Origin: Streptomyces sp. NBC_00178
GTDB lineage: Bacteria; Actinomycetota; Actinomycetes; Streptomycetales; Streptomycetaceae
Reading direction: 5' to 3'
NCBI RefSeq assembly: GCF_036206005.1
Contig: NZ_CP108143.1
Location: forward strand, 682,001-746,000
Length of the DNA stretch: 64,000 bases
The notes under the pieces were generated by a model. The model made no database searches, had not been told where the DNA came from, and saw only the letters and a program-made list of their open reading frames with translations. How positions within the stretch are numbered: position 1 is the stretch's first letter; each line of letters opens with the position of its first letter. Below are positions 36,424-40,055 of the stretch, piece after piece. The position numbers and the translations under genes were made by a program.

Positions 36424-36635
36424 ATTTCTTACTGAGGGGTAGGCCCGCCCCGAGTCCTTGCTATACCTTGCGTCTAACAAGCGGGACGGAAGGCGGCCGG
36501 GCGAGGCGTGCGCCCAGCCCTCTCGCCCGGCCCTGCCGCCATGCCCCCTCACGGGCACGGCACATGACGGCCCGTCTCCCCGACCACGCTGTGACAGCGC
36601 CGAGGAACATCACTGACGAACCGAGGAGCCGCACC

Positions 36636-37550
36636 ATGGCAAGCAGCACCGTCCGGCCGGACGCGCAGGACCGGCCCTCCGAGAACGACCTCACCCGCCG
36701 CCTGCTCGCATCCGCGGCGACGCTCGCCTACGACCCCGCCACCGAGGTCGACTGGGACACCCCGCTCGACAAGGCGCACCACGGCGCGAGCCCGGAGTGG
36801 AGCACCCTCTACGGCACCGCTTACTGGGCGGAGCTGACGGAGGAGCAGCGCACGGAACTCACCCGCCAGGAAGCCGCGTCGGTCGCGAGCACCGGCATCT
36901 GGTTCGAGATGATCCTGCAGCAGATGATCCTGCGCGACGTCTACGCGAAGGACCCGACGAGCGCGGACGTCCAGTGGGCCCTGACCGAGATAGCCGAGGA
37001 GTGCCGGCACTCGATCATGTTCGCCCGCGGTGCGCAGAAGCTCGGCGCCCCGGCCTACCGGCCGCGCCGCCTCGCGGTGGAGCTGGGCAGGGCCTTCAAG
37101 ACACTCGCGTTCGGCGAGGCCGCGTACGCCGCGATCCTCGTCGCCGAGGAGGTCCTCGACGTCATGCAGCGCGACTGGATGCGGGACGAGCGGGTCGCGC
37201 CCTTCGTGCGCACGATCAACAACATCCATGTGGTCGAGGAGTCCCGCCACATGAAGTTCGCCCGCGCGGAGACCCGCAAGCACCTGAGCGGCGCCGGGCC
37301 GGTCCGGCGCCGCGTCAACGCGCTGGTCATCGCCATCGCCTCGTACGTCATCGTCACGAGCATGGTCAGCAAGGACGTCTACGCCAACGCGGGACTCGAC
37401 CCGGAGCGCGCCATCGGCGAGGCGAGGGCCAACGAGCACCACAAGTCGATGATGCGGTCGAGCTGTTCGGGCCTCATGGACTTCCTGGCCTCCGCCCGCC
37501 TGCTCACCAAGCCCGCCCTGCTGTTCTACAAGCGCGCCCACCTGATCTGA
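36636..37550 (+). CDS. AurF-like diiron N-oxygenase family protein
   Basis: A 304-residue ferritin-like enzyme. Two ligand clusters of a diiron site are visible: EECRH at residues 121-125 and HVVEESRH at 198-205 (His198, Glu201/202, His205), plus Glu in GIWFEMILQQMI. This is the pattern of AurF/CmlI-type oxygenases, which turn arylamines into nitro compounds, though related proteins do other oxidations. GAGGAG precedes the ATG at 36636. The next gene, nine bases away, encodes a fused ferredoxin and ferredoxin reductase and is a natural electron source. The substrate is unknown. A terminator and MarR gene follow. Confidence 0.82.
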   Translation: MASSTVRPDAQDRPSENDLTRRLLASAATLAYDPATEVDWDTPLDKAHHGASPEWSTLYGTAYWAELTEEQRTELTRQEAASVASTGIWFEMILQQMILRDVYAKDPTSADVQWALTEIAEECRHSIMFARGAQKLGAPAYRPRRLAVELGRAFKTLAFGEAAYAAILVAEEVLDVMQRDWMRDERVAPFVRTINNIHVVEESRHMKFARAETRKHLSGAGPVRRRVNALVIAIASYVIVTSMVSKDVYANAGLDPERAIGEARANEHHKSMMRSSCSGLMDFLASARLLTKPALLFYKRAHLI

Positions 37551-37559
37551 GCGGACGAC

Positions 37560-39209
37560 ATGACCTACGCCATCACCCAGACGTGCTGCAGCGACGCCAC
37601 CTGTGTCTCGGTGTGCCCCGTGAACTGCATCCATCCGACGCCCGGGGAACCCGGCTTCGGCAGGACGGAGATGCTGTACATCGACCCGGAGTCCTGCATC
37701 GACTGCGGCGCCTGCGCCGACGCATGCCCGGTGGACGCGGTCTTCCCGCTGGACTCCCTGCCCGCCGCACAGCGCGAGTACGGCCCCCTCAACGCGGCCT
37801 ACTTCGCGGACCATGAGCCCGCGCCGGCACCCACCGGGCCGAACTTCCACGCGTGGGCCCGGCCGTCCTTCGAGCGCAGCCTGCCGTCGGACTTCGGCCC
37901 GCTCCGGGTCGCGGTGGTCGGCACGGGGCCGGCGGGGATGTACGCCGCCGAGGACCTGCTGCTGCACACCGCCGCCGAGGTGACGCTGATCGACCGGCTG
38001 CCGGTCGCGGGCGGCCTGATCCGCTACGGCGTGGCGCCCGACCACCTGTCGACCCGCAAGGCCGGCGACACCTTCGCCAGGTTCCACTCCCACCCCCGGG
38101 TGCGCATGCACCTCGGCCTGGAGGTCGGCCGGGACGTCACCCCCGCGGAACTGGCGGCGCACCACGACGCCGTGATCTACGCGGTGGGCGCACCGGCGGG
38201 CCGCCGGCTCGGGATACCGGGCGAGGACCTGCCCGGCAGTGTCGGCGCCTCGACGTTCGTCTCCTGGTACAACGCCCACCCGGACGTCGCCGCGGACGCG
38301 GTCGTCCTGTCCGCCGAGCGGGTCGTCGTGGCCGGCAACGGCAACGTCGCCCTGGACGTGGCGAGGATCCTGGTGTCGGACCCGGGCGCACTCGCCGCCG
38401 GCGACATCGCGGGCCACGCGCTCCACGCCCTGCGGGACGGCGCCGTCCGCGAGGTCGTGGTACTCGGGCGGCGCGGCCCCGAGGACGCGGCGTACACGCG
38501 GTCGGAGCTGCTCGCCCTGAAGCATCTGCCGGGTGTGGAGCTGGTCGTGGACGACCACGACGCGAGGGTGGGCGCGGCGATCGACGCCGCGCTCCCGGGA
38601 GAGCGGGCGGCCCTGCTGGCCGGTGTCGGGCGCGCGCGGGTGGACTGGTCCCGCCCGCCGTCCGAGGGGCGTCGGATCGTGTTCCGCTTCCACTCCTCGC
38701 CGCTGGCGGCACTCGGCGACCGAGCGGTCACCGGCGTGCGGGTCACGGAGGCGGGGAGCGGCGCGGAGACCCGGGAGATCGCGGCCGGAATGCTGCTGAG
38801 CGCCGTCGGCCAGCGCGGCGTCGCGGTCGCGGGGCTGCCGTTCGACGAGGCGGCCGGCACCGTTCCGCATGTGGCGGGCCGGGTGGCGGGGCGGCCCGGG
38901 ACGTACGTCGTGGGATGGATCAAGCGGGGTCCGTCGGGTGGCATCGGGGCCAACAGGACATGCGCGGCCGAGACGATCGGCGCCCTGCTGGAGGACGCCG
39001 TCGCGGGCACCCCGCCGGAACACGGGCCGAAGGCCTTCGGGCGGCTTGCCCGGCGCCGTAACCGCGAGATCGTGGACGCCTGCGGCCTGGCGCGGATCGA
39101 GCGGGCCGAACTGGCCCTGGGGCACCGGGACGGACGCCCGAGACTGAAACTGGCGACGACGTCCGAACTGGTCGCCGCGGCGAAGGGCCGGCGGCGGACT
39201 GCGAGCTGA
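37560..39209 (+). CDS. Ferredoxin fused to ferredoxin-NADP reductase (FprB-like)
   Basis: A 549-residue electron-transfer protein. The N-terminal ferredoxin (residues 1-80) has two cluster motifs: CCSDATCVSVCPVNC and CIDCGACADACPVDAV. The reductase begins at about residue 115 with FAD-binding VAVVGTGPAGMYAAEDLL and has NADP-binding VVVAGNGNVALDVARILV and the closing KRGPSGGIGANRTCAAETI. It passes electrons from NADPH through FAD to Fe-S clusters. It is in one operon with the AurF-like oxygenase and probably feeds it. Similar fusions (FprB) occur in mycobacteria. ATG at 37560. Confidence 0.9.
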   Translation: MTYAITQTCCSDATCVSVCPVNCIHPTPGEPGFGRTEMLYIDPESCIDCGACADACPVDAVFPLDSLPAAQREYGPLNAAYFADHEPAPAPTGPNFHAWARPSFERSLPSDFGPLRVAVVGTGPAGMYAAEDLLLHTAAEVTLIDRLPVAGGLIRYGVAPDHLSTRKAGDTFARFHSHPRVRMHLGLEVGRDVTPAELAAHHDAVIYAVGAPAGRRLGIPGEDLPGSVGASTFVSWYNAHPDVAADAVVLSAERVVVAGNGNVALDVARILVSDPGALAAGDIAGHALHALRDGAVREVVVLGRRGPEDAAYTRSELLALKHLPGVELVVDDHDARVGAAIDAALPGERAALLAGVGRARVDWSRPPSEGRRIVFRFHSSPLAALGDRAVTGVRVTEAGSGAETREIAAGMLLSAVGQRGVAVAGLPFDEAAGTVPHVAGRVAGRPGTYVVGWIKRGPSGGIGANRTCAAETIGALLEDAVAGTPPEHGPKAFGRLARRRNREIVDACGLARIERAELALGHRDGRPRLKLATTSELVAAAKGRRRTAS

Positions 39210-39283: not shown

Positions 39284-39349
39284 ATTCCGTTTCCGCGTGC
39301 GGCCGATTCCGTTTCCGCGTGCGGCCGATTCCGTTTCCGCGTGCGGCCG
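39284..39349. repeat. Three exact 22-base tandem repeats
   Basis: The unit ATTCCGTTTCCGCGTGCGGC plus CG occurs at 39284-39305, 39306-39327 and 39328-39349, with a partial fourth copy (ATTCC) after it. Each unit contains the small dyad CCGC-GT-GCGG. The array lies between the reductase terminator and the MarR gene; 22 bases is two turns of DNA, so all dyads face the same side. Confidence 0.85.
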
Positions 39350-39420
39350 ATTCCCTTCCCACCCCCGCCCTGGGAGGTGACGTGACATCAACTCCGTCCC
39401 GGGTGAACCCGGTTACACAC

Positions 39421-39439
39421 TAAGGTTAGGCTTGCTTAA
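39421..39439. promoter_or_regulatory. Iron-box-like site upstream of MarR
   Basis: TAAGGTTAGGCTTGCTTAA agrees with the DmdR/IdeR iron-box consensus TTAGGTTAGGCTAACCTAA at 15 of 19 positions. It overlaps a second dyad, GCTTA-AC-TAAGC at 39434-39445. It is 44 bases upstream of the MarR start, a good place for a repressor. Confidence 0.55.
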
Positions 39440-39482: not shown

Positions 39483-40055
39483 ATGCGCCAGTCGGCCTCC
39501 CCCGGGGCGGAACGCGACACACCGGACCCCCAGGGCTCAGGGAGACCCGGCCCCTCGCCCCTCACCACACCCCCGAGCGTGCTCGGGCTGAACGCCTACC
39601 TGATGTACGCCACGGGCAAGGCCGCACGCCGCAGACTCACGGAGCGGCTGTCGGCCCACGGGCTGCGCCTGTGGCACCTCACCATCCTGGCCATGCCGGA
39701 GGACGCCGGCCGGGTCTCCAAGGGCGACCTCGCCTCCCGGCTGGACATGAACCAGAGCGACCTCACCAGGACGGTCACCGACCTCGAACGCGCCGGTCAC
39801 GTCCGGTGCGCCCGCGACCCCTCCGACCGCCGCCGCATAGAGGTCACGCTGACGCCGGCAGGCAGAAGCACCCTGACCGCACTCAACGCCGACGTCGCGG
39901 CGGCCGAGTCGGAACTCCTCGCGCCACTGGACGCGGACGACCGCGAGCGTTTCGCCCTGCTGCTCCGCCGCGTGCACGCGCACCTCGAACACGACAGGGC
40001 GGGCACGCCGTCCGACGTCGTCCCCAGGGCCCCGGCGTCACCCCGCAACGGGTGA
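39483..40055 (+). CDS. MarR-family transcriptional regulator
   Basis: A 190-residue regulator. After a Pro-rich, probably disordered N-terminus (residues 1-37) the MarR fold runs from LNAYLMYATGKAARRRLTER; the winged helix contains SKGDLASRLDMNQSDLTRTV and the wing RCARDPSDRRRIEVTLTPAG. GAGGAGGAAGAACC lies before the ATG. It follows the oxygenase/reductase operon on the same strand but behind a terminator and its own control region, and may regulate that operon in response to an aromatic ligand, as MarR proteins often do. The iron-box-like site suggests a link to iron supply. Confidence 0.87.
   Translation: MRQSASPGAERDTPDPQGSGRPGPSPLTTPPSVLGLNAYLMYATGKAARRRLTERLSAHGLRLWHLTILAMPEDAGRVSKGDLASRLDMNQSDLTRTVTDLERAGHVRCARDPSDRRRIEVTLTPAGRSTLTALNADVAAAESELLAPLDADDRERFALLLRRVHAHLEHDRAGTPSDVVPRAPASPRNG

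What the first reader, a model, noticed from the sequence alone, without database searches (positions are those of the whole stretch)
36636..39209. Self-contained diiron oxygenase plus fused ferredoxin/reductase operon of unknown substrate
An AurF-like enzyme (EECRH and HVVEESRH ligand clusters) is followed nine bases later by a protein that carries both a ferredoxin and a ferredoxin-NADP reductase. AurF/CmlI-type N-oxygenases need an electron source that is often unknown or encoded elsewhere. A dedicated two-gene unit beside a UbiA prenyltransferase and an srs-like phenolic-lipid operon could make an N- or C-oxidised aromatic lipid. The substrate and the link to the neighbours are inference.
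Basis: partly seen in the sequence, partly recalled or inferred. Interest (0 to 1): 0.75.

Follow-up and report, generated by a model that had tools for sequence, protein, structure and literature searches.

The report
Diiron oxygenase with a private reductase
This Streptomyces gene pair encodes a protein of the AurF family of iron oxygenases together with a fused ferredoxin-reductase that stays beside it in many actinobacteria and is likely its private electron supply, which would show where some of these enzymes get their power, although what the pair acts on is still unknown.

Summary
36636-37550 encodes a PF11583 (AurF) protein with all seven diiron ligands of N-oxygenases. Nine bases later, 37560-39209 encodes a 7Fe-type ferredoxin fused to an FprA-type reductase. 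The pairing is steady: 80 of the 80 named loci kept, and 13 of 14 members of this oxygenase clade in 148 genomes of the class. A second, distant clade with mycobacterial relatives is paired with its own branch of the same fusion family (18 of 23 members with known context). The reductase tree groups by partner, and five genomes hold both pairs without swapping. In 61 Streptomyces genomes a 25-bp palindrome occurs only in front of this gene. The AlphaFold model ranks CmlI and AurF first among solved structures. UbiA and the srs-like genes lie within 8 kb of only 3 of 63 homologues, so the aromatic-lipid idea is not supported. Most likely this is a self-contained NADPH-driven diiron oxygenase, probably acting on nitrogen. 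The substrate is unknown and electron transfer is inferred.

The parts
36428..36445 (+). GGGGTAG-type element (CTTACTGAGGGGTAGGCC in the window) upstream of the palindrome; possibly part of the promoter/operator
   Evidence: 67 upstream regions aligned on the palindrome show GGGG in at least 80% at this place; the rest of the element was read by eye
36457..36481 (.). 25-bp palindrome CTTGCTATACCTTGCGTCTAACAAG, predicted operator of the pair
   Evidence: >=14 of 20 specified bases in 75 of 80 upstream regions (window plus 79 loci) against 3 of 1600 shuffles; only site in the window and in the genome with up to 3 mismatches, where the backwards control pattern matched two places
36636..37550 (+). 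AurF-family (PF11583) ferritin-like protein, predicted diiron oxygenase, 304 aa; ligands E91, E122, H125, E172 (or E171), H198, E202, H205
37560..39209 (+). fused ferredoxin (residues 1-~86, Cys motifs of the 7Fe type) and FprA-type ferredoxin reductase (114-539), predicted electron donor of the oxygenase
   Evidence: co-occurrence and matched tree with the oxygenase

Best explanation
The two genes encode an AurF-family protein that keeps the seven diiron ligands and a ferredoxin-reductase fusion that is likely its dedicated electron donor, so that together they would form a self-contained NADPH-driven oxygenase. Predicted flow: NADPH to FAD in the FprA-type domain, to the two iron-sulphur clusters of the ferredoxin domain, to the diiron site (3 His, 4 carboxylates), which then activates O2. 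The seven-ligand site is the one described for N-oxygenases, so oxidation of a nitrogen atom of a small, still unknown substrate is the most likely chemistry (inferred). The pair is an accessory unit with its own operator, probably bound by a regulator encoded elsewhere (inferred), and not part of the neighbouring phenolic-lipid cluster. Shown here: gene order, ligands, fold match, co-occurrence, matched trees, palindrome. Inferred: metal content, electron transfer, chemistry, regulation, substrate.
For: Steady pairing: 80/80 kept named loci; 13/14 of the clade in 148 class genomes, gaps -4 to 106 bases. Matched trees: reductases beside clade I form one clade (13, SH-aLRT 100), those beside clade II another (18, 98), the 6 of 10 solitary ones included a third (89); five genomes hold both pairs without exchange. 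Of the 41 full fusions in the list, 31 follow an AurF-type gene, 2 directly follow a P450 gene, and 8 have neither in the 1.5-3 kb looked at, so the fusion tends to follow an oxygenase gene. The seven ligands are kept in the clade I, II and III members aligned; PMC13061610 (passages) calls the seventh His characteristic of FDO N-oxygenases. Best structural matches are CmlI and AurF. Palindrome: 15 of 61 Streptomyces genomes have it, every site beside this gene, which 18 of 61 have; backwards control pattern none.
Against: No biochemistry. Structure-based identity to AurF/CmlI is only 14-15%, so a different reaction is quite possible; C-H halogenases of the CylC type are predicted to have a related 3-His site (PMC12101540, passages). 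Some close members lack the fusion: L144, L097, L098 and Pseudonocardia plasmid pBCI1-2, so it is not strictly required. Most AurF-family members have none (67 of 98), and the paired label needs six changes on the tree. DnfA works in vitro without its operon reductase DnfB (PMC9478400, passages), so an operon neighbour need not be the donor. 3 of the 18 Streptomyces genomes with the gene lack the palindrome within one mismatch.
Confidence: 0.62

Rival explanations
1. Same two-protein machine, but it likely oxidises carbon (hydroxylation, desaturation or oxidative cleavage of a lipid-like or xenobiotic substrate) and not nitrogen.
For: Identity to AurF/CmlI is only 14-15%; RNR R2 and R2-like oxidases score next. 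A relative (31% identical to the query; up to 43% to unpaired class members) on Gordonia plasmid pGKT3, with a similar operon on a Rhodococcus plasmid, sits with an NAD(P)/FAD oxidoreductase, an SDR, a ferredoxin reductase and a hydrolase, which reads as a catabolic pathway. No amine-related neighbour is conserved in the Streptomyces loci.
Against: The seventh ligand His198 is conserved in the clade I-III members aligned; most nonheme diiron hydroxylases have a 2-His/4-carboxylate site (PMC12101540, passages).
Confidence: 0.25
2. The reductase fusion is a general donor (for P450s or other Fe-S acceptors) and the neighbouring diiron protein takes electrons from elsewhere.
For: Papers list M. 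tuberculosis FprB, a fusion of this kind, as a possible P450 partner (PMC6469627, PMC6208970, passages). Two of the 41 fusions directly follow a P450 gene, and eight have neither an AurF-family gene nor a P450 in the 1.5-3 kb looked at.
Against: 31 of 41 follow an AurF-type gene, the reductase tree groups by partner, and five genomes keep two separate pairs.
Confidence: 0.1
3. The pair tailors a phenolic lipid made by the adjacent srs-like operon and UbiA.
For: The neighbours are there, and three close relatives have these genes within 8 kb (L004, L008, L009).
Against: 60 of 63 long loci have the pair without these genes within 8 kb, and in the other three they lie about 3.4-3.5 kb farther off; the pair has its own palindrome.
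Confidence: 0.03

Closest known systems
AurF and CmlI, arylamine N-oxygenases (PF11583)
   Different: 14-15% identity in structure alignment; the dob cluster of the AurF-like Dob3 encodes no redox partner (PMC13061610, passages), whereas this locus does
FprB of Mycobacterium tuberculosis (Rv0886)
   Same: Ferredoxin fused to a ferredoxin reductase (PMC6469627, passages); by its number it follows Rv0885, which I recall, from no call, as an AurF-family gene
   Different: FprB is filed as a possible P450 partner with acceptors not characterised; the fusion beside L127, whose oxygenase is 98% identical to a Mycolicibacterium protein, falls in the clade II branch and not in the window's branch
DnfA/DnfB of Alcaligenes ammonioxydans
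   Same: AurF-like diiron enzyme, a hydroxylamine oxidase, encoded with a ferredoxin-reductase-like protein (PMC9478400, passages)
   Different: DnfB is described with a 2Fe-2S domain and not as a 7Fe ferredoxin fused to an FprA-type reductase; DnfB was not needed in vitro; a third gene, an amidotransferase, is present
FprA of M. tuberculosis (1lqt)
   Same: Reductase half, E 3e-92 over residues 114-539
   Different: FprA, 456 residues, is matched from its residue 3 on and has no ferredoxin part

Membership tests
PF11583 AurF family | Pfam gathering score | tested here: met
   328.8 bits against 29.6
PF11583 AurF family | seven diiron ligands (3 His, 4 carboxylates) | tested here: met
   E91, E122, H125, E171/E172, H198, E202, H205 in the query and in the clade I-III members aligned; positions match AurF in the alignment of a clade II protein
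PF11583 AurF family | fold of AurF/CmlI | tested here: met
AurF/CmlI-type N-oxygenase (function) | oxidation of an amine or other N atom | not testable with these tools
   needs enzyme assay
FprB-type ferredoxin-reductase fusion | N-terminal 7Fe-type ferredoxin with its Cys motifs | tested here: met
   FdxA-type match 1-86, below NCBIfam's own cut-off, and 7Fe ferredoxins of solved structure; CC.D..C...CPV.CI and C..C..C...CP in 37 of 37 fusions examined
FprB-type ferredoxin-reductase fusion | FprA-type FAD/NADPH reductase half | tested here: met
   E 3e-92 to FprA including GRRG; in 37 fusions GxGPA in 31 and GRRG in 25; that GRRG binds the NADPH phosphate is recalled
srs-like phenolic-lipid cluster | conserved gene neighbourhood with the pair | tested here: not met
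   within 8 kb in 3 of 63 long loci

The most novel reading that the evidence does not exclude
FprB-type fused reductases of actinobacteria, the mycobacterial ones included, are mainly private electron donors of a hidden class of AurF-type diiron oxygenases and not general P450 partners: two oxygenase clades each carry their own orthogonal reductase clade, and the Streptomyces one is controlled by an operator found nowhere else in the genome.
Probability: 0.5. Interest if true: 0.75.

Novelty: new variant of a known kind. Interest (0 to 1): 0.57.

Why it matters
AurF-type oxygenases such as Dob3 and RohS were assayed with a chemical mediator, phenazine methosulfate (PMC13061610, PMC10724926, passages), and the Dob3 paper says its cluster lacks a redox partner. 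Here a donor is named by gene order and matched phylogeny, and can be tested directly. It would also give the orphan FprB-type reductases a likely partner. No paper in the held library contains both AurF and FprB (0 papers); that library lacks most subscription journals.

Tried and rejected
Aromatic-lipid link through UbiA/srs: rejected by neighbourhood comparison. A third conserved neighbour in Streptomyces: none (the next most frequent family is in 14 of 80 loci; the simple gene caller used there found the reductase itself in 70 of 80, against 80 of 80 by tblastn). Sigma-70 promoter and terminator scans: nothing. Regulon of the palindrome: no second site in the genome (in one search, at three mismatches, the backwards control pattern matched two places, the real one only its own), so the regulator could not be named. 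The GGGGTAG element as a genome-wide motif: the pattern used had no hit at all, not even in the window, so it was badly chosen. A TACC-N3/4-GGTA dyad upstream of several AurF-family groups was spotted by eye in the same sequences, so its excess over shuffles is not an independent test. The AurF-ferredoxin fusion protein P0190 looks like a frameshifted metagenome read and was not used. Placing AurF itself in the tree failed: branch length 7-9. Both trees are quick ones with SH-aLRT support alone. The class survey scored at most 9 candidates per genome for the reductase, and its list is cut at the weak end; a fusion is counted if its match runs from residue 7 or before to 485 or beyond, so one borderline match (G049, from residue 35) is not counted. 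60 AurF-family matches without a locus were fetched; most matches weaker than E about 1e-12 were not. Three fragments under 250 aa were dropped before the tree.

Full report
WHAT IS THERE. The first protein matches PF11583 (AurF) at 328.8 bits and no NCBIfam model at E 0.001. The second matches FdxA-type ferredoxins over residues 1-86 and FprA over 114-539. The window's genome, 7.4 Mb, is a Streptomyces by its nearest named relatives. It holds three AurF-family genes, of which only this one has the fusion beside it.

PAIRING. The 80 named loci kept out of 544 found (79 titled Streptomyces, one [Kitasatospora] papulosa) all have the fusion downstream on the same strand. In 78 it aligns as one piece; in L010 and L013 it is split, with pieces in different frames. 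In 148 genomes of the class, the window's own included, 72 have an AurF-family match. From the fetched loci 98 family members with known context were placed on a tree: 31 have the fusion next to them and 67 do not. The label needs six changes, against a shuffled mean of 26.5. The 31 lie in two places: clade I, the window's own (13 of 14; 13 of 16 with its unpaired sisters L097 and L098), and clade II (18 of 23). Clade II members are 19-21% identical to the query in the alignment, and the named relatives of one of them are Mycolicibacterium and Mycobacterium. The list holds 41 full fusions. 31 are these. The other ten have no AurF-family gene in the 1.5-3 kb looked at, and two of them directly follow a P450 gene (L130, L228). 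On a tree of 37 of the 41 (four solitary ones had no locus yet) clade I partners, clade II partners and solitary fusions are three separate groups. Genomes G022, G099, G102, G112 and G122 carry both pairs, each with its own reductase branch. A dedicated electron donor predicts this; a general donor does not.

PLASMIDS. Among 27 plasmid records with a match, the five at 60% identity or more are taken as clade I. I looked at four: NBC_01237, SGAir0924 and Rhodococcus qingshengii have the fusion, and Pseudonocardia pBCI1-2 does not. The fifth, a second Pseudonocardia plasmid, was not opened.

CONTEXT. In the 63 of 80 loci of at least 15 kb, the srs-like genes and UbiA lie within 8 kb of the pair in three, GAPDH in five and MarR in two. 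A clustering of neighbours in 80 loci found no other gene family in more than 14 loci. In three of eight non-Streptomyces clade I loci, genes that read by eye as groES-groEL lie upstream and guaB downstream. The pair is thus a unit of its own and not the tail of a biosynthetic cluster.

PROMOTER ELEMENT. Upstream regions share a 25-bp palindrome, CTTGNTAKAC-N5-GTCTAACAAG (window 36457-36481). 75 of 80 regions (window plus 79 loci; one locus was too short) reach 14 of 20 consensus bases, against 3 of 1600 shuffled regions; the consensus was derived from these same regions. In a scan of 61 Streptomyces genomes, which may overlap with those loci, 15 have the site within one mismatch, every site lies just upstream of the clade I gene, 5 genomes have two abutting copies, and the backwards control pattern has none. 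18 of the 61 have the gene, so three lack the site. In the window's genome it is the only match with up to three mismatches, where the backwards control matched two places. Of the 26 paired clade I and II genes outside Streptomyces none reaches 14 of 20; one unpaired gene, L146, does. The regulator is unknown; unpaired relatives L097, L144, L173 and L177 have genes beside them that look like TetR regulators by eye (not scanned).

LITERATURE. PMC13061610: passages; native redox partner of Dob3 not in its cluster. PMC9478400: passages; DnfA and DnfB. PMC10724926: passages; RohS assayed with phenazine methosulfate. PMC6469627 and PMC6208970: passages; FprB listed as a possible P450 partner. PMC4117774 and PMC4916473: passages on Rv0885 regulation by CRP and in hypoxia. 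Search listings only. That Rv0885 is an AurF-family gene is recalled, not shown here.

VERDICT. The lipid link is not supported. The chemistry is likely N-oxidation, and the substrate is open.

Noticed in passing
G000:C1:4958522-4960515 (L156 4956-5891 - and 6173-7189 +): Two further AurF-family genes stand back to back; the + one has Val at the seventh-ligand His position. A divergent twin is seen in 8 fetched Streptomyces loci, this one included.
   Followed up: partly
L130 240-3180; L228 3001-6023: Fused ferredoxin-reductases directly following a P450 gene (4 bases apart, and overlapping by a base), so the fusion family may also serve other oxygenases.
   Followed up: partly
L235 4400-10404; L236 4398-10402: Gordonia and Rhodococcus plasmid operons: DUF4873, diiron oxygenase, NAD(P)/FAD oxidoreductase, SDR, ferredoxin reductase, hydrolase.
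   Followed up: no
window 39421-39439: Iron-box-like sequence taaggttaggcttgcttaa upstream of the MarR-family gene 39483-40055 (read by eye against a recalled consensus).
   Followed up: no
window 39284-39354: Perfect 22-bp tandem repeat, 3.2 copies, just downstream of the reductase gene.
   Followed up: no
upstream of L088, L094, L095, L127, L129, L132, L136, L138, L192 and of unpaired L107, L162-L165, L172: TACY-N3-RGTA dyads upstream of AurF-family genes of several clades, perhaps a shared regulator.
   Followed up: partly
L233 5941-8135 (Pseudonocardia plasmid pBCI1-2; source given as Apterostigma dentigerum): A clade I oxygenase gene (62% identical) without the reductase fusion in 6 kb on either side.
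   Followed up: partly
L124, L134, L229: Three solitary fused reductases lie beside acyl-ACP thioesterase-like genes.
   Followed up: no
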